From contig JAABSB010000013.1 in NCBI GenBank assembly GCA_011390615.1, forward strand, positions 1-35,507: 35,507 bases of DNA. Reading direction: 5' to 3'. Positions 23,639 through 32,222 of this stretch are shown in pieces; positions within the stretch are counted from its first letter, which is position 1, and each line of letters starts with the position of its first letter. The notes below the pieces were generated by a model that made no database searches, had not been told where the DNA came from, and worked only from the letters and a program-made list of their open reading frames with translations. The translations under genes and the position numbers were made by a program. The DNA comes from Desulfotignum sp. (lineage in GTDB: Bacteria > Desulfobacterota > Desulfobacteria > Desulfobacterales > Desulfobacteraceae).

Positions 23639-25912
23639 TCAGATAGGGTTGGATTCCATTGATATTACCTCCACTGTGTCCACTTTCCGGTATCCCCTGG
23701 GTAACAGCCGGCCTCTGTGTCCGCGCATTCCTGTATAATCAGCTTGTCTGTCAACACCCAGGAGCAAAGAATACTTTTTGGCATGTATAACAAGATTAGA
23801 ATGTAATGGCAATATTTTTAAGAACTTGAGTTTTTCCGGGTCCGCAGATCTCCGTTCTTTTTTGGGTATGGTGATGATTTTGTTTCCCTGTCCTTTTTTC
23901 AAACGGGGAAGTTCATGTAAAGGAAAAATGAGCATCCTGCCTTTTGTTGTGACAGCCGCAACCGCATCTGTTTCAATGTTAACAATCGGTTGCGGCTGCA
24001 TGGGAACTGCATGGTTTTTTAAGGTGATCACGGATTTTCCGTTTTTAAAATGGGTCAGAAAATCTGAAAATTTTATGATGAATCCATACCCGCTGTCAGA
24101 ACCCACCAGAAAATGGGTGGTATTGGTCTGGGACAGCATACAGCAGATCCGGACATCAGGCTGCAAAGACAGATGTCCGGTCAGCGGTTCTCCGTTGCTT
24201 CTGGCTGAGGGCAGAACATGGGGGTACAGGGTATAACTGCGGCCGGAACTGTCTAAAAACACAATGGGTTTGTCGCTTTGGGTGCGCAAATGGCATTGCA
24301 GATCATCTCCTGATCTGAATTTCACTTTTTGCGGATCAATGTCATGGCCCTTGGCCGACCGGATCCAGCCGTTCCGGGACAAAATTATGGTCACCGGTTC
24401 CTTCTCCATGACATCGGTAATGGAAAACGCTTCAGCTTCCTTGCGCACCTGGATGGGGGACCGCCGTTTATCTCCGAATTTTCTGGCATCTGCTTTTATT
24501 TCATCAATAATGTATGCCCTGAAAGCGGTTTTATCATGCAACAGGGTTTCTAAGGTTTTTTGTTCATCTTCCAGATCCTTTATTTCCGAAAGCAGTTTGA
24601 TCTCTTCTAATCTAGCCAGCTGGCGCAGCCTGATATCAAGGATGGCTGCTGCCTGGATTTGAGACAGGTCAAATGCCTTTATCAATTCCTGGTTGGGGTG
24701 GTCGGACTGCCGAATAATCCGGATCACCTCATCGATATGCAGAAAAACGATGCGGAATCCTTCCAGAATATGGAGTCTGCTCACAACCTTATCCAGGCGG
24801 AACCCAAGTTTTTTTTCCACTGTATGGAACCTGAATTCCAGCCATTCCAGAAGAATGGTTTTTAAATTTTTAACTGCCGGCCGGCCGTTGATCCCTATCA
24901 TGTTCATGTTGAATGAATAGGATTTTTCCAGATCAGTCGTGGCAAACAGATGGTCTGCAAGGGCGGTGAGATCCACCCTGCCGGATCTGGGAATTACCAC
25001 CAGACGGATGGGATCTTCATGGTCTGATTCATCCCTGATATCACTGACCATGGGCAGTTTTTTTGCTTCCATCTGTGCGGCAATCTGTTCATGTATTTTT
25101 TCAGCTGATGCATGGTAGGGCAGGGCAAAATACACGATATCGCCCTCTTCAATGCGGAATCTGGCCCGCATTTTCATCCGTCCGTTTCCGGTTTCATAAA
25201 TCGCGCGGATCTCTTCGGCAGGGGTGATGATTTCCGCTTCAGTGGGAAAATCCGGGCCCTTGATATGTTTGAGCAGGGCATCAAGGGGGGTGGTTTCATC
25301 TTCTATGAGCATTATCAACGCTTTTGCCACCTCCCGCAGGTTGTGGGGCAGAATGCTTGTGGCCATTCCCACGGCAATGCCTGTGGTGCCGTTGAGCAGC
25401 AGGTTGGGCAGCCTTGCCGGCAGCAGCCTGGGTTCATGCAGGGTACCGTCAAAGTTGGGTGCCCATTCCACCGTGCCCTGCGCCAGTTCATCCAGCAGAA
25501 GGTCGGCATACCGGGAAAGCCTGGATTCGGTATACCGCATGGCAGCAAAGGATTTGGGATCATTGGGATCACCCCAGTTGCCCTGGCCGTCCACAAGGGG
25601 GTACCGCAGTGAAAAGGGCTGGGCCATGAGCACCATGGCCTCGTAGCAGGCGGTGTCCCCATGGGGATGAAATTTGCCCAGTACATCTCCCACGGTACGG
25701 GCAGATTTTTTGAACTTTGCCGTGGATGAAAGTCCCAGCTGGCTCATGGAATAAACAATGCGCCGCTGCACAGGTTTGAGGCCGTCCCCGATATGGGGCA
25801 AAGCCCTGTCTAAAATCACATACATGGAATAGTTGAGATACGCTTTCTGAGCAAACTCCTGGAAAGCGATTTTTTCATACTCTTCCATGACAGAGGGTAA
25901 AATGTCTTTCAT
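23639..25912 (-). CDS. parC: DNA topoisomerase IV subunit A
   Basis: ParC with ParE separates linked daughter chromosomes. The 757-residue protein aligns by eye through its whole N-terminal domain with E. coli ParC (752 residues), including [21 protein letters not shown] and the catalytic Tyr127 in AAMRYTESR. The quinolone-determining stretch reads [10 protein letters not shown]: the position of E. coli Ser80 is Thr87, and Glu84 is kept as Glu91. The C-terminal domain is shorter and less regular than that of GyrA and lacks a GyrA-box, which supports ParC over GyrA. ATG at 25912 follows the parE stop by 1 nt. Confidence 0.95.
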
Positions 25913-25913
25913 G

Positions 25914-27848
25914 TTATTCTATCTCTTCGATATTGCCCTGGGTTTCTATCCAGCGTTTTCTGTCTTTGGCACGTTTTTTTCCCAGCAGCATGTCCATGAT
26001 TTCATGAACATCATCCATGGCATCGGCCTGTTTTACAGTCAACTGCACAAGACGTCTGGAGTCCGGTGCAATGGTGGTTTCCCTTAGCTGGACAGGGTTC
26101 ATCTCACCTAAGCCCTTGAAACGCTGGACATTTATTTTTCCCGGTTTCTTCCTGCGTTTGATCCGTTTGATAATGCCCTGTCTTTCCGCATCATCCAGGG
26201 CATAAAAAACCTCTTTTCCCACATCGATCCGGTACAGGGGCGGCATGGCCATAAAAACATGTCCGTTCTGGACAATTTTGGGAAAATGTTTTAAAAACAG
26301 GGCACAAAGGAGGGTGGCAATATGCAGCCCGTCAGAATCCGCATCCGCCAGAATACAGATTTTGTTGTACCGGAGCCTGGAAATATCTTCCTGTCCGGGC
26401 AGCACCCCGAGTACCTGGACAATGTCCCGGATTTCTTTGGATTCAATAATGGCGGATGCCGGCATGTCCCAGGTGTTCATGATCTTGCCCCGCAACGGCA
26501 TGATTGCCTGAAACCGCCTGTCCCTGGCCTGTTTGGCTGATCCGCCTGCAGAATCCCCTTCCACAAAAAACAGTTCTCTGCGCTGCTGGTCGTCACTGGT
26601 GCAGTCTGACAGTTTGGCCGGCAGAACAACGCCGTTGGCAGCCTGTTTCCGGGTGACTTTTTTGGATTTTCTCACCCTGGCCCTGGCATGTTCCACTGCC
26701 AGTTCGGCCAGGGCCTCTCCCAGATCCACATGCTGATTGAGCCAGAGACTGAAGGCATCCCGCACCTTGAGATTCACCAGATTGGCGCAATGACGTGATG
26801 ACAGCCTTTCCTTGGTCTGGCCGGAAAACTGGGCCTCAGACAATTTAACAGACAGCACATACCCCACATTGCTCCAGATATCTTCTGGTGCCAGGAACAG
26901 GTTTTTGGGCAGAAGATTTCGAAACTTGCAGAACTCCCGCAAAGATTCCAGCAGGCCGGATCTGAATCCATTGACATGGGTACCCCCTAAAGGGGTGGGG
27001 ATCAGGTTCACATAGCTTTCTTCCATGCCTGATCCTGTCTCTTTCACCCAGTTCACCGCCCACACAGCCTGGAAATCATCTGCCCGGCAATGGCTGCTGA
27101 ATGGTTTTGGAAACAATGTGTTATGGTCCTTGAGATGCTCATTTAAATATTCATCCAGACCATGGTCATACACCCAGGTGTGTTTTTCTCCTGTGGCTTC
27201 ATTCAGAAAACTGGTTGTCAATCCCCTGCACAGAACCGCTTTTGATTTTAAAGCATTTTTGATGGCGGTCTGTGAAAAAAAGGTCCGTTCAAAATATCCG
27301 GGGTTTGGAAAAAAATGTACCCATGTGCCGGTGGTATTGTCCGGGGTCTTTCCCACCACCGCCAGGTCCCGGATTTTGATGCCGTTTTCAAAACCGATGG
27401 AAAATTTTTGTCCCCTGCGGAAAATGGTAATATCAAGCCGGGCAGACAGGGCATTGACAACAGAGACCCCCACACCGTGCAGCCCGCCTGAAAAAGCATA
27501 GTCTTTATTGGAAAATTTGGCCCCTGCATGAAGCCTTGTCATGATCAGTTCCACCCCTGAAATACCCTCTTTGGGATGGATATCCACAGGCATTCCCCGT
27601 CCGTTGTCCGTCACAAGGATGCTGTTGTCTTTTTTCAGAATCACATCAATGGTGTCGGCAAATCCGGCAATGGCTTCATCCACACTGTTGTCGATCACCT
27701 CAAACACAAGGTGGTCCGGACTGGTTGTGTCTGTATACATCCCGGGCCGGCGTTTGACAGGGTCCAGTCCCTTGAGGATCTCAATGGATTCTGCATCATA
27801 TCTGCCAGCCCTGCCTGCTGGCTCAGCATGTGAATCAAATGGTTTCAT
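25914..27848 (-). CDS. parE: DNA topoisomerase IV subunit B
   Basis: ParE is the ATPase subunit of topoisomerase IV. The 644-residue length fits ParE rather than the longer GyrB form. The GHKL ATPase motifs are VIDNSVDEA (Mg/ATP site), DNGRGMPVD and [15 protein letters not shown]. The Toprim domain has [11 protein letters not shown] and the aspartate set ADADSDG. The last block, FKGLGEMNP, is the usual type IIA B-subunit signature. ATG at 27848 is only 40 nt from the divergent cyclase frame. It leads the parE-parC-mltF set. Confidence 0.96.
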
Positions 27849-27888: not shown

Positions 27889-30800
27889 TTGGTTACCGGT
27901 CACAATGTGCTGGTGAACACGGTTGATTTTAAAGATGACCATATATCACTTTTAATTAAAAAGGTAAAACATAACAAAATATTTTCCATGACCGATTTGT
28001 CTTTTCCATTTGATGAAAAAAATTATGAAACGCTATGGGTATCCCTGGATGAAGAGAAAAAATATGATCTGGTGACCCAGGCACCCGGCCTTGCGCCTTC
28101 CTTAGGTATACTGCCGGTAATTGATGCAGTGCTGTCATACCATTTTTCACTTCGGAGCCATGCCCGGAAGGCCATGGGCCTTATCCAGACAGAGGTCCTG
28201 TCCATGCTGAACAATCCTGAAAAAACGCAGCTGCACACACAGGGGTTAAAAGAGTCCGCCATGGTGTGTGCCAGGATTTATCAACGGCTCACATCGGACA
28301 TATCCCAGAACGAAGCCATATATTTGTTCAAAACTTTGGTGGAATTTGGTGATACCGGGGCATTTTTTGCATTTAAATCCCTGCGCAATAATGTTGTCAG
28401 TGTGACTGCCATGCACAAAGCTGTGTATCTGGTCACCGAATCCCAGCGCCTTTGTTTTATCGACCAGTATCTTCAGTCTTCTCCGGAAATCCGCTTACGG
28501 TATGCAGCTGTTTTTAAAAAAATGCTCACCAACATCCAGACACGTGAAGCGGTTATCGATTTTTTTGCCAGCCTGTTTGACCGGAAACGGGATGCAGATC
28601 CTTTTTTGAACAATATTCCCGGGGAATTGCGAAACCCTGACACCCTGCTGAAAAATGAAATCTTGTCCCAGTCTCCGGCCATCAAGATCAAGGGGCTGAA
28701 AGCCCTGTCCATGCTGAAAGGAAAACTGCCCGGCAAACTGCTTATCCAGATTCTTGAAAATGAGGAGGTAAAAAAAATAAGAGAAGCGGTATACAGCCTG
28801 ATTGAAAATTCATCCATGGGGCTGTATCCCCAGCTGTTTGATCCGGTTTTCCGATTGTTTTTAAAAGCAGACAAACAAGAAGCCTTCAACGCCTTCAAGG
28901 CCCTGATAGTTACGGGCAAAAAACCGGTGTATGCCCTTATCGATCTGGCCAGAAAAACCCATCCTGATCTTATCCCTGTTTTAGATGCAGAACTTGCGGA
29001 CCTGTCCAGGCTTTCTTTTTTTGTGATACAGGACATTGCCCTCAATAAAACACACTACCAGGAAACCAATTATGATATCAATCTGGCATGTATACTGGGA
29101 ATGGTCAAAAAAAGACCGGAGCGGGTGGTCCGTCTGTTAAAGGATCTTGCAAAAATGCCTGAGAAAAATCAGGCACGCGATACATTACACTTCATGGAAA
29201 AAGCAAAATCCCTGCTGGAACTGGAGAAACAGGATATCTCATTATGGTTTGAGACCCTTATCAACACATTACAGCAGGCCCCGGAAAAATCAAAAAATAT
29301 TTTTTCAGCTGTGTTTCAGGATCCTATTAAAAAGAAACTTGAAGCTTTGAAAGCAAACATTGCCCAGAAAACCATTGATTTTCAGGACCTGACCATTGAG
29401 GGTGAGAACTTTTCTGAACTGCGGTTTTCCGCCTCTACCCTCTATTTTAACGGCGCTACGCTGAAAAACTGTGATTTTTCCGGTTCTCACATGGAAAAAG
29501 CCTGGTTCAAACAGGCGGTTCTCCATAACATCGACTGGTCCGGTGCAGTGGTGCAGAACGTTAATTTTGACCATGCTGTGCTGATGCATATCAACGCTGA
29601 AAACACGCAGTTTGTGAACTGCAGCTTCCTGGGTGTCCGGCTGTTTAACTGTAATTTTACACAGGCAGATCTTCATGATGCCGTATTTACTGACGCCCAG
29701 ATTTCCAAAACCGCTTTTACACATGCCAATCTGACATGTGCTGTGTTTTCCCATGCCAGGATATCCGGTGTTTCCTTTGCCACAGCCTGTCTTGAACAGG
29801 CAGATTTTTCTTTTGTCCAGTCCCGTTTTTCGCGGTTTCCTCCCAGTGCCGGGTCCGTGATACGGTGTGAGAAGATTGCATATAATGCCAGACGGTATCA
29901 GCTCAACCTTACAGATCTTCCATGGATGGAAAAATCCATTGCAGCAAAAATCAATCTGCTTATTTTCTGTGAATTTATCCATTATGGAGAAAACAAGTTT
30001 TTAAACCAGAACAAAATGAGCATCCTCACGGCTTTTGATGTTTTTAAACCCTCACAGGCAGACTTTTTCCAGCTCGTTCCCCTTTTGCTGCACAAAAATA
30101 TTGATCTGCCGGGCATCCCCCCCATACACCCCAAAACACCCTGCGGTATAGCAGATTATATGCCCTCCGGCACTGCGCTGCAGGTGCTGGAAAAATTTAC
30201 AGGTGCCCACAATCACAAGGCAGAACACATTTCTGCGCCCTGTATTGAAGGGGTTTTTACCATGGGAAGCGTAGGGTCGTTGGCCCAGACCCATGCATCT
30301 GACATAGATTATTGGGTGTGTATTCACGAGGAGCGCATGACTGCCCATGAGCATTCTTTGTTTATGCAGAAACTTGCATTGCTGGAAAAACTGGCAATAG
30401 AAAAATGTAAAATCCAGACCACTTTTTTTGTTGTGGATATCCAAAAGGCAAAAAATAATGACTTTGGCGGATCCACCCAGGAAAGTTCCGGCTCAGCCCA
30501 GTCCCGTCTGCTGAAAGAAGAATTTTACAGAACCATGATCCATGTGGCTGGAAAACTGCCCCTCTGGGCAGTACTTCCCACGTCCATAAGCCTGAATTAT
30601 TACCACATGATCATGACCCAAATCACCCGCCTGTCCGGATCCCACAGATATATTGACCTGGGAGACATCCATGCCATACCGGTGAATGAATATTTCGGCG
30701 CTTCCATCTGGCAGATGTTTAAATGGCTCAAAAGCCCGTTCAAATCGGTGATTAAAATGGCACTGCTGGAAAAATACATCTATTCCTATGGGCAGGAACC

Positions 30801-31857
30801 CCTTTTGTGCAACCAGTACAAAAATGTATGGATGAATTCAGGGACCCATCTGAAACTGGCGCAGAATGATTCGTATATCATTCTGCTGAACAATCTTCTG
30901 GCCTATTACCGGTCTGCAGGGGACACAAAATCCATGAACCTTATCCTCACCTGTTTTTTTCTGAAGCTGGAGATTTCAAAGGATGCCGTTCTGGACAATA
31001 CCGTTTTCGGGCTGCGCAGACATCTGGTGACCGATTCCATTGTCAAATGGGGATGGAGCCTCTCCAGGCTCTTTGAAATCGGACATTTCAAAGAATGGGA
31101 CTACCAGCGGATCCACAGGCTGTCCGCCTCCATTGAACGGTATATGCTCATCAAATACAGCCAGGTGAAAAAAACCTGTGAAAGCCATTCCAGCGGATTG
31201 ATGATTTCAGATGAAGACCGCCGGGTGCTTGAACGGAAAGTGGATATTGTTTTTCTGGATAAACCCTTCAAGATAAAAAAGATTCTTCTGGTTTCCAGAA
31301 GCGACCGGTTGTTTTCACGGCTGCATCTCAGATATCTGCCCGGGCGTGACACCCGGGTCAAATGGGAATTGTTTCACAAATCCACAAAACTGCACCAGAG
31401 CATTGACGAGTCACTGGTGCAAACCCGGACCATTGAGGAAATAGGGGCATGGCTCATCAACAACGGCCTTTTTACAGAACATGCAAGTGTCAGTCTGGTT
31501 CCCAATCCCACCCAGGTAACCCACGATGATATCCAGAAGCTTTTTTGTGCAATGAAAGGGTTTTTCACCCCGCAGCTCAGGCAGGCTTTCAACTTCAGTG
31601 AGCTGAAAAAAAAAGCACCAGGCATCACATGTGTATTTGTCAGCTTCAATTTTTATGCGCCCCGTCAGGAATCAAAAGTTACAGATTATTGTGCCGTTTA
31701 TATCAACTCCTGGGGTGAGATGTTTTATCTGACCTGCAGTCCCAACCAGGAGTTTGTCTCTCCGGAGACGGCCAAAAAAGAGATTCTTGACCGTCTGAAG
31801 ATAAATAAATTTCCTTTAAAAACCATGTTCTATTTTTCCAGGGGCAAATCCAGATAG
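27889..31857 (+). CDS. cyaA: Class I adenylate cyclase with HEAT-like and pentapeptide-repeat N-terminal extension
   Basis: The C-terminal half (about 660-1322) matches enterobacterial CyaA by pattern and makes cAMP from ATP. The nucleotidyltransferase motif is GSVGSLAQTHASDID at 793-807, with the metal aspartates Asp805 and Asp807. It is followed by LLKEEFYRTMIHVAGK, the NEYFGASIWQMFK block, and a regulatory-like tail ending about 25 residues short of the E. coli end. E. coli CyaA (848 residues) carries its catalytic motif near residue 110; here it lies near 800. The added N-terminus is an alpha-helical HEAT-like region (about 60-490) and a pentapeptide-repeat domain (501-648). No membrane segment was seen. 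The first codon is probably TTG at 27889, with no Shine-Dalgarno; GTG at 27907 or 27913 and ATG at 27988 are alternatives. Confidence 0.9.
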   Translation: MVTGHNVLVNTVDFKDDHISLLIKKVKHNKIFSMTDLSFPFDEKNYETLWVSLDEEKKYDLVTQAPGLAPSLGILPVIDAVLSYHFSLRSHARKAMGLIQTEVLSMLNNPEKTQLHTQGLKESAMVCARIYQRLTSDISQNEAIYLFKTLVEFGDTGAFFAFKSLRNNVVSVTAMHKAVYLVTESQRLCFIDQYLQSSPEIRLRYAAVFKKMLTNIQTREAVIDFFASLFDRKRDADPFLNNIPGELRNPDTLLKNEILSQSPAIKIKGLKALSMLKGKLPGKLLIQILENEEVKKIREAVYSLIENSSMGLYPQLFDPVFRLFLKADKQEAFNAFKALIVTGKKPVYALIDLARKTHPDLIPVLDAELADLSRLSFFVIQDIALNKTHYQETNYDINLACILGMVKKRPERVVRLLKDLAKMPEKNQARDTLHFMEKAKSLLELEKQDISLWFETLINTLQQAPEKSKNIFSAVFQDPIKKKLEALKANIAQKTIDFQDLTIEGENFSELRFSASTLYFNGATLKNCDFSGSHMEKAWFKQAVLHNIDWSGAVVQNVNFDHAVLMHINAENTQFVNCSFLGVRLFNCNFTQADLHDAVFTDAQISKTAFTHANLTCAVFSHARISGVSFATACLEQADFSFVQSRFSRFPPSAGSVIRCEKIAYNARRYQLNLTDLPWMEKSIAAKINLLIFCEFIHYGENKFLNQNKMSILTAFDVFKPSQADFFQLVPLLLHKNIDLPGIPPIHPKTPCGIADYMPSGTALQVLEKFTGAHNHKAEHISAPCIEGVFTMGSVGSLAQTHASDIDYWVCIHEERMTAHEHSLFMQKLALLEKLAIEKCKIQTTFFVVDIQKAKNNDFGGSTQESSGSAQSRLLKEEFYRTMIHVAGKLPLWAVLPTSISLNYYHMIMTQITRLSGSHRYIDLGDIHAIPVNEYFGASIWQMFKWLKSPFKSVIKMALLEKYIYSYGQEPLLCNQYKNVWMNSGTHLKLAQNDSYIILLNNLLAYYRSAGDTKSMNLILTCFFLKLEISKDAVLDNTVFGLRRHLVTDSIVKWGWSLSRLFEIGHFKEWDYQRIHRLSASIERYMLIKYSQVKKTCESHSSGLMISDEDRRVLERKVDIVFLDKPFKIKKILLVSRSDRLFSRLHLRYLPGRDTRVKWELFHKSTKLHQSIDESLVQTRTIEEIGAWLINNGLFTEHASVSLVPNPTQVTHDDIQKLFCAMKGFFTPQLRQAFNFSELKKKAPGITCVFVSFNFYAPRQESKVTDYCAVYINSWGEMFYLTCSPNQEFVSPETAKKEILDRLKINKFPLKTMFYFSRGKSR
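29389..29832 (+). repeat. Pentapeptide-repeat domain coded within the cyclase gene
   Basis: Residues 501-648 of the cyclase repeat with a five-residue period, in the A(D/N)LXX style: central F or L positions recur in units such as NFSEL, DFSGS, NFDHA, DLHDA, AFTHA, DFSFV. About 28 units are present. Such repeats fold into a right-handed quadrilateral beta helix, usually a protein-binding or DNA-mimic surface. Confidence 0.85.
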
Positions 31858-31870
31858 AAAGTGTCCAGGA

Positions 31871-31897
31871 TTGACTTTTGGCAGGAAATCATATAAC
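31871..31897 (+). promoter_or_regulatory. Possible sigma70-type promoter for ptsH-ptsI
   Basis: TTGACT (31871-31876) and TATAAC (31892-31897) with a 15-nt spacer, which is short. It lies just after the cyclase stop (31857), so ptsHI may have its own transcription start as well as read-through from the cyclase gene. Confidence 0.35.
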
Positions 31898-31921
31898 AAA
31901 AGGAAAAATTTTTCTTAAAAC

Positions 31922-31937
31922 AAAGAGTTTGCGTTTG
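31922..31937 (+). promoter_or_regulatory. Shine-Dalgarno favouring a TTG start for ptsH
   Basis: AAAGAG (31922-31927), 7-nt gap, TTG (31935-31937). An in-frame TTG at 31878 would add 19 residues not found in HPr proteins. Confidence 0.55.
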
Positions 31938-32222
31938 AAAAAACATATACAATTGTCCCATGACACCATTGTTAGAAATGACCTGGGAATGCATGCAAGA
32001 CCGGCAGCCCGGATAGCGAAAATGGCCATGACCGCAGAACATGATATCTGGCTTTCAGATGGCAAAACCCAGGTGGATGCCGCAAGTATCATAGATATTT
32101 TAACCCTTTGCGCCACAAAAGGTGCCTGTATATATATCCAGGCGGCATCTGCCGCGGATGCCCCGGTGGTGGATAGAATCAAGTCTTTTTTTGACGATGG
32201 ATTTGGAGAATTAGCAGAATGA
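31935..32222 (+). CDS. ptsH: Phosphocarrier protein HPr
   Basis: HPr takes a phosphate from Enzyme I on a histidine and passes it to an EIIA or regulatory partner. With the TTG start at 31935 the protein is 95 residues, near the usual 85-90. The active site is GMHARPAARIA with phospho-His20. The regulatory serine region is present as AASIIDILTLCATKG, so HPr kinase control is possible in principle. The gene lies 77 nt after the cyclase and overlaps ptsI by ATGA. No EII permease or EIIA gene is in the window, so a regulatory rather than sugar-uptake role is likely. Confidence 0.93.
   Translation: MKKHIQLSHDTIVRNDLGMHARPAARIAKMAMTAEHDIWLSDGKTQVDAASIIDILTLCATKGACIYIQAASAADAPVVDRIKSFFDDGFGELAE

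What the first reader, a model, noticed from the sequence alone, without database searches (positions are those of the whole stretch)
27889..31857. Class I adenylate cyclase rebuilt with HEAT-like and pentapeptide-repeat scaffolds
The CyaA-type catalytic motif (GSVGSLAQTHASDID at residues 793-807) sits about 690 residues later than in E. coli. The added N-terminus has two kinds of repeat: an alpha-helical HEAT-like region and a pentapeptide beta helix of about 28 units. Both are usually binding surfaces. This suggests a cyclase whose output is set by a partner docking on its N-terminus.
Basis: partly seen in the sequence, partly recalled or inferred. Interest (0 to 1): 0.78.

Follow-up and report, generated by a model that had tools for sequence, protein, structure and literature searches.

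The report
Repeat-scaffold class I adenylate cyclase family
This gene encodes an enzyme predicted to make the signal molecule cyclic AMP, joined to a long repeat-built front half that probably docks a partner; related sulfate-reducing bacteria share the design, and the partner is unknown.

Summary
One unbroken gene encodes a class I adenylate cyclase (residues ~700-1322) behind a HEAT-type alpha-solenoid (~46-462) and a pentapeptide beta-helix (~494-648, about 31 units). It is no sequencing error and not private to this genome: one scan gave 28 complete homologues, and the 28 long genes in the tree form one branch, apart from short cyclases. The solenoid was seen only inside the window's own order. 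Catalytic signature residues are kept in all 28. It aligns to E. coli CyaA only up to residue 640 of 848. EIIA-Glc, the E. coli regulator, was not found in 8 of 9 genomes checked. The gene sits head-to-head with parE-parC in 28 of 31 testable loci, yet some relatives keep that locus with the cyclase absent, so coupling to topoisomerase IV is weakly supported. A parallel: all 13 sampled short cyclases of one clade have a neighbouring receiver-TPR gene, so a solenoid may act in trans there and in cis here. Best reading: the N-terminus docks a partner that places or gates the cyclase. Activity, partner and effect are not shown. New variant of a known kind.

The parts
27988..31857 (+). Most likely coding sequence (ATG start, 1289 aa): alpha-solenoid + pentapeptide beta-helix + class I adenylate cyclase
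   Evidence: ORF; M at this column in 33 of 42 unique homologues; domains
27889..27987 (+).
   Evidence: Alike only in close relatives in the alignment; parE starts at 27848 on the other strand
28024..29274 (+). HEAT-like alpha-solenoid, residues ~46-462
   Evidence: AF2 helices; HEAT_2 in 12 of 42 homologues; PDB profile search returns engineered alphaRep-type proteins, best E 9.3e-5, 2 of 11 below 0.01
29368..29832 (+). Pentapeptide-repeat beta-helix, residues 494-648, about 31 units
   Evidence: Pfam (29 of 29 members of A1); Foldseek best matches MfpA, AlbG, Qnr and synthetic solenoids; periodicity
29992..30567 (+). Adenyl_cycl_N, residues 702-893
   Evidence: PF12633 E 4.8e-50
30265..30309 (+). 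Catalytic motif GSVGSLAQTHASDID, residues 793-807
   Evidence: Alignment with E. coli CyaA; pattern present in all 30 long rows, 28 different genes
30649..31587 (+). Adenylate_cycl region, profile 2-314 of 601; no counterpart of E. coli 641-848
25914..27848 (-). parE (topoisomerase IV B), divergent neighbour; context only
   Evidence: 58% to E. coli ParE against 38% to GyrB; divergent neighbour in 28 of 31 testable loci
23639..25912 (-). parC (topoisomerase IV A); context only
   Evidence: 58% to E. coli ParC
31878..32222 (+). HPr; direct adjacency looks secondary because other lineages have a LOG-type gene in between
   Evidence: PF00381
32219..33988 (+). ptsI (PTS enzyme I); context only

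Best explanation
A class I adenylate cyclase whose N-terminal half is a docking module: a HEAT-type alpha-solenoid of roughly 420 residues leads into a pentapeptide beta-helix of seven to eight coils, which leads into the catalytic domain. SHOWN by sequence or model: the fused architecture, its presence through the family and in a few other families of the order, one branch in the tree, kept catalytic signature residues, no counterpart of the last ~208 residues of E. coli CyaA. INFERRED: it makes cAMP; a protein binds the solenoid and/or beta-helix and so places or gates the cyclase; this input stands in for the EIIA-Glc control of E. coli, since that EIIA was not found in 8 of 9 genomes checked; the signal goes to cNMP-binding proteins, which all 9 genomes encode.
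For: Domains. Catalytic residues. Long forms on one branch, support 100/97 (30 rows, 28 different genes). Solenoid module in 31 of 340 genomes sampled in the order and 2 of 395 in the phylum sample (the window's own genome and one of the same order); 36 of 39 match rows (34 frames) lie in open frames of 1193-1397 aa, so no clear stand-alone gene was seen. The solenoid is under constraint: mean pairwise identity 0.34 (34-150), 0.45 (151-300), 0.52 (301-420), 0.30 (421-485), pentapeptide part 0.43, against 0.59-0.64 in 701-1020, with a nearly invariant KKRPERVV stretch. One side of the beta-helix is more conserved than the others (115 of 5000 shuffles reach the spread; one test). EIIA-Glc in 1 of 9 genomes, cNMP-binding domains in 9 of 9. 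Parallel: 13 of 13 S2-type short cyclases have an adjacent receiver-TPR gene.
Against: No partner was identified and no activity measured. Repeat domains can also serve stability, assembly or localisation. The model that includes the catalytic part is poor (mean pLDDT 67.7, long stretches below 50), so no contact between N-terminus and active site can be claimed. 20 of 21 sampled short cyclases of the order have frames of 629-757 aa, shorter than E. coli CyaA and without this N-terminus, so loss of the E. coli C-terminal part and gain of the arm look like separate events. The cyclase is dispensable: 7 of 12 same-genus genomes had no match to it, six of these seven had no class I domain (the seventh, G010, is not in that listing), and three of the seven (G004, G008, G011; the ones checked) have 8-10 class III domains each.
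Confidence: 0.5

Rival explanations
1. The N-terminus is a localisation or oligomerisation scaffold; the cyclase has constant specific activity and no docking partner changes it.
For: HEAT solenoids and pentapeptide helices are often structural (general knowledge); nothing in the calls separates gating from placement.
Against: A nearly invariant solenoid stretch suggests a specific contact, but that could equally be an anchor.
Confidence: 0.25
2. Input comes from the regulatory PTS (HPr, EI, EIIA-Ntr-type, EIIA-Man-type): the N-terminus reads the phosphorylation state of one of these proteins, a changed version of the E. coli arrangement.
For: HPr and ptsI lie next to the cyclase in the window and beyond one LOG-type gene in other lineages, also in L160-L163; PTS_EIIA_2 and EIIA-Man domains are in 9 of 9 genomes.
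Against: HPr and ptsI keep their place beside parE when the cyclase is absent; the LOG-type gene is on the other strand, so no shared operon there; unlinked long copies such as L149 have the pentapeptide and cyclase domains too with no HPr or ptsI in the stretch read.
Confidence: 0.12
3. The pentapeptide helix mimics DNA and binds topoisomerase IV or gyrase, as Qnr and MfpA do, so cAMP output reports topoisomerase occupancy or DNA topology.
For: Head-to-head with parE-parC in 28 of 31 testable loci; parE also beside 5 of the long copies, two of them deeper-branching in the family (L158, L159). Foldseek best matches are MfpA, AlbG, Qnr and synthetic solenoids.
Against: Such matches are expected of any pentapeptide helix. 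Net charge of the helix is not consistently negative (window -6, mean -2.4, range -8 to +5 over 57 rows, 42 unique). parE-parC persist where the cyclase is absent. Three of 31 loci have no parE beside the cyclase; L149-L157 and L160 show none in the stretches read.
Confidence: 0.05
4. A degenerate or re-purposed nucleotidyltransferase that does not make cAMP.
For: I found no assay of this architecture in the searches made; phmmer found no solved relative of the catalytic half in the PDB.
Against: GS...SDxD with the following aromatic and W, the acid of the FFxxD block, ESSG(S/T)AQ and EFYRT are shared or closely matched in E. coli CyaA.
Confidence: 0.07

Closest known systems
E. coli CyaA (class I adenylate cyclase, 848 aa)
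   Same: Catalytic domain: 27% identity over 638 alignment columns, E 3e-61; active-site motifs align
   Different: No HEAT or pentapeptide part is aligned; E. coli has ~208 more residues at the C-terminus, the part I recall (not read here) as tied to glucose control
Short class I cyclases of the PRK09450.2-1 type (NCBIfam NF006981, 638 aa)
   Same: Best NCBIfam model, aligned almost full length (701-1290 to 24-623 of 638)
   Different: Score 375.6 is below that model's cut-off of 802; sampled short proteins lack the N-terminal module and branch apart
Pentapeptide-repeat proteins MfpA, Qnr, AlbG
   Same: Same beta-helix fold
   Different: Those are free-standing gyrase-binding proteins, dimeric as I recall; here the helix is an inner segment of a cyclase
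HEAT / alphaRep solenoids
   Same: Weak profile and fold resemblance
   Different: No specific natural HEAT family matched; in the genomes sampled the module was seen only in frames of this size
Yeast adenylate cyclase with a leucine-rich-repeat domain that binds Ras (recalled, no call)
   Same: Works-like precedent: a cyclase activated through a repeat domain
   Different: Class III catalytic domain, unrelated repeats

Membership tests
Class I adenylate cyclase | PF12633 and PF01295 above curated cut-offs | tested here: met
   170.8 and 171 bits against cut-off 27 each
Class I adenylate cyclase | Catalytic GS...SDxDxW signature and downstream conserved blocks | tested here: met
   Alignment of 52 rows including E. 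coli CyaA
Class I adenylate cyclase | Makes cAMP from ATP | not testable with these tools
   No assay possible
E. coli-type CyaA regulation | Full-length PF01295 / E. coli C-terminal segment | tested here: not met
   Only profile 2-314 of 601; alignment stops at E. coli 640 of 848
E. coli-type CyaA regulation | EIIA-Glc (PF00358) in the genome | tested here: not met
   None in the window's genome, which is 83% complete; found in 1 of 9 genomes, inside an 853-aa frame
NCBIfam class I cyclase equivalogs | Score above the model's curated cut-off | tested here: not met
   Best 375.6 against 802; the other eight class I models also below theirs
Pentapeptide-repeat domain | Tandem pentapeptide units forming a beta-helix | tested here: met
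HEAT repeat domain | HEAT profile match above Pfam's cut-off and a helical solenoid | tested here: inconclusive
   Solenoid by model; HEAT_2 above cut-off in L156 and L157; 12 of 42 N-termini at E up to 0.1; the window copy itself gives no HEAT hit
Qnr/MfpA gyrase-binding proteins | Acidic DNA-mimic surface, dimer, gyrase binding | tested here: inconclusive
   Net charge varies from -8 to +5; surface charge, dimerisation and binding not tested

The most novel reading that the evidence does not exclude
Class I cyclases of these bacteria take their input from alpha-solenoid scaffolds instead of EIIA-Glc: in cis through the fused HEAT-pentapeptide arm (this family), in trans through the receiver-TPR protein encoded beside every S2-type short cyclase sampled. 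A catalytic class described in 2005 as not known to sense the environment would then have evolved modular docking inputs at least twice.
Probability: 0.3. Interest if true: 0.68.

Novelty: new variant of a known kind. Interest (0 to 1): 0.5.

Why it matters
Class I cyclases are known mainly through E. coli CyaA and its PTS control (general knowledge); [quoted passage not shown] A conserved family with a large folded N-terminal arm, in bacteria most of which (8 of 9 checked) showed no EIIA-Glc, gives a concrete system for asking how else class I cyclases are controlled. Records of isolates carry it (Desulfospira joergensenii DSM 10085, Desulfobacter latus AcRS2, D. vibrioformis DSM 8776).

Tried and rejected
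CRP autoregulation of the divergent promoter: a near-consensus CRP core (1 mismatch) begins 82 bases before the ATG, but of 25 intergenic regions only the window, L037, L048 and L055 come within 1 mismatch, the last two at another place, so it is not conserved.

HPr-EI as operon partners: not taken as direct evidence. In five of five relatives inspected that have a gap there (L034, L038, L040, L048, L055) an opposite-strand gene of one type lies between; Pfam calls it LOG/SLOG-type in L034 and in the cyclase-less L106, the others by sequence likeness. The PTS genes stay where the cyclase is absent.

Giant fusion in G236 (open frame 2743): artefact of a run of N upstream; dropped as a fusion, but its visible part (query 256-1320) stayed in the tree.

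Full-chain model: the 1192-residue job gave a poor cyclase part, so no interdomain contact is claimed. Foldseek's alphaRep match (rank 50, E 1.1e-5) has TM 0.22 and rmsd 16, so it is weak.

Papers: 'class I adenylate cyclase' with 'pentapeptide repeat' 0 papers; 'pentapeptide repeat', 'HEAT repeat' and 'adenylate cyclase' together 0; 'class I adenylate cyclase' alone 8 papers, 7 listed, none on this architecture by title or abstract start. The library is open-access only. A paper on a light-responsive Vibrio CyaA (PMC13079933, passages only) suggests N-terminal input in another class I cyclase; it concerns a different protein. Searches gave listings of little use; passages of PMC4398509 and PMC6123446 did not settle the role of the E. 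coli C-terminus.
Full report
What is there. The window holds one open frame, 27889-31857 on the + strand, with pentapeptide repeats at about 500-650, the class I cyclase N-terminal domain at 702-893 and the class I core at 921-1233. Homologues put the start at ATG 27988: M occupies that column in 33 of 42 unique rows, the window included; some of the other nine have M a few columns away.

Fold. AlphaFold2 on 29 aligned window/locus sequences gives a confident model of residues 34-700 (pLDDT 89.3, pTM 0.87): 26 helices in series, the last two less certain, then a beta-helix. Residues 434-443 of the model (467-476 here) fall below pLDDT 50. Foldseek finds pentapeptide proteins first (MfpA, AlbG, Qnr, synthetic solenoids) and an artificial alphaRep only at rank 50 with a low TM score. 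The window N-terminus alone hits no HEAT model; HEAT_2 matches 12 of 42 homologues, and among six further long copies it is above the Pfam cut-off in two (L157 9.2e-11, L156 1.1e-7), marginal in one (L154 0.039) and absent in three. A profile search of the PDB returns 11 chains, engineered alphaRep-type proteins by name in 9, best E 9.3e-5, 2 below 0.01. The second model (131-1322) is poor in the cyclase part, and phmmer found no solved relative of the catalytic half.

Catalysis. The window aligns to E. coli K-12 CyaA from 708-1316 to 16-640 at 27% identity. In an alignment of 52 cyclase rows the GS...SDxD(Y/F)W pattern, ESSG(S/T)AQ and EEFYRT are in all 30 long rows, which are 28 different genes; the acid of the FFxxD block is also kept. 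I recall from the literature, without a call, that E. coli S103, D114, D116 and W118 matter for activity; the residues are as stated and align with window S794, D805, D807 and W809. E. coli 641-848 has no counterpart in the alignment.

Distribution. One scan of genome contigs gave 35 loci, 28 complete and used in alignments A1 and A2; the other 7 are cut by contig ends (6) or frame-broken (L060). With the solenoid profile, 31 of 340 sampled genomes of the order match, and 2 of 395 in a phylum-wide sample: the window's own genome and G087 of the same order. Of 39 match rows, 36 sit in frames of 1193-1397 aa; the exceptions are a 150-aa piece of a broken copy, a 72-aa remnant with stops, and one weak hit in a 1100-aa frame. 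By Pfam, 6 of 6 further long copies tested, 4 of them from other families of the order, carry pentapeptide and cyclase domains; I did not scan every frame.

Phylogeny. A tree of 52 catalytic rows (30 long rows, 21 short, E. coli) puts the long forms on one branch (100/97) and the shorts on another (99/91), the shorts in two clades of 8 (S1) and 13 (S2). Two long genes entered twice (L016 = L162, L029 = L160). The program flags E. coli as a long branch and five rows for letter make-up. The label '_parE' in row names was a working label, wrong for L029/L160, which has no parE in the stretch read. Several genomes carry a second long copy and a short cyclase.

Neighbourhood. The divergent gene is parE, not gyrB: 58% to E. 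coli ParE, 38% to GyrB, followed by parC (the labels gyrB and gyrA are mine and should read parE and parC). Of 35 loci, four begin inside the cyclase; 28 of the other 31 have parE divergent, 3 (L046, L052, L062) do not. In the extra stretches, parE is beside L158, L159, L161, L162 and L163 and was not found by L149-L157 or L160. Downstream, an opposite-strand LOG-type gene separates the cyclase from HPr in five of five relatives inspected; in the window's genus and in Desulfospira (L050) there is no room for it. Among genomes without the cyclase, six of the same genus (G001, G004, G008, G009, G010, G011) have parE beside HPr, and three others (G034, G046, G143) have parE-LOG-HPr. G012 was too fragmentary; G014 and G024 show neither HPr nor the cyclase in the ~1.5 kb read. 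Of these twelve, eleven have no class I domain; G010 is not in that listing and has no match. So the cyclase comes and goes without the neighbours changing.

Signal path. EIIA-Glc domains were found in 1 of 9 genomes, EIIA-Man and PTS_EIIA_2 (EIIA-Ntr-type) in 9 of 9, cNMP-binding domains in 9 of 9; class III cyclase domains in 11 of 11. The E. coli route through EIIA-Glc is therefore unlikely in most, and cAMP probably has other sources in these cells.

Parallel. All 13 S2 shorts have a neighbouring, same-strand gene of 337-382 aa resembling a receiver-TPR protein; BLAST found none in the 8 S1 loci or the long loci held, some of which are cut by contig ends. Four of the 13 were scanned by Pfam, and all four show receiver and TPR domains. 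By eye in the alignment, the phospho-acceptor position is A or S in all 13, so it looks like a pseudo-receiver. This suggests, but does not show, that solenoid proteins are inputs to class I cyclases here, in trans for S2 and in cis for the long form. Against it: nine of the 13 S2 cyclases have lost a conserved block and may not be active.

Verdict. The docking idea is plausible and untested; placement or assembly is the main rival. The catalytic family is known; the architecture is an undescribed variant as far as paper searches 10, 63 and 65 reach.

Noticed in passing
L129-L136, L138, L142, L143, L146, L148: Conserved receiver-TPR gene beside all 13 S2-type short class I cyclases; the receiver lacks the phospho-acceptor Asp by eye (A/S).
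   Followed up: partly
L129-L136, L148 (S2 short cyclases): In nine S2 short cyclases the ESSGSAQ block kept in E. coli-like form by S1 and long rows is lost while GS...SDxD remains (L142 is altered too); they may be inactive or changed.
   Followed up: partly
L129:153-1406; G041:C1 and G045:C1 near the S2 cyclases: A class III cyclase gene (GAF detected in L129) lies within about 2 kb of the S2 class I cyclase in three genomes.
   Followed up: no
G013:C5, G031:C23, G036:C54, G040:C88, G044:C56 (genus g2): A divergent long-cyclase lineage with frames of 1348-1397 aa that the query matches in separate pieces.
   Followed up: no
L131:1506-1994: Stand-alone cNMP-binding protein (163 aa frame) about 1.1 kb upstream of an S2 cyclase.
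   Followed up: no
window 27906-27921: Near-consensus CRP core TGTG-N8-CAC starting 82 bases before the ATG, shared at that place only with the closest relative L037.
   Followed up: yes
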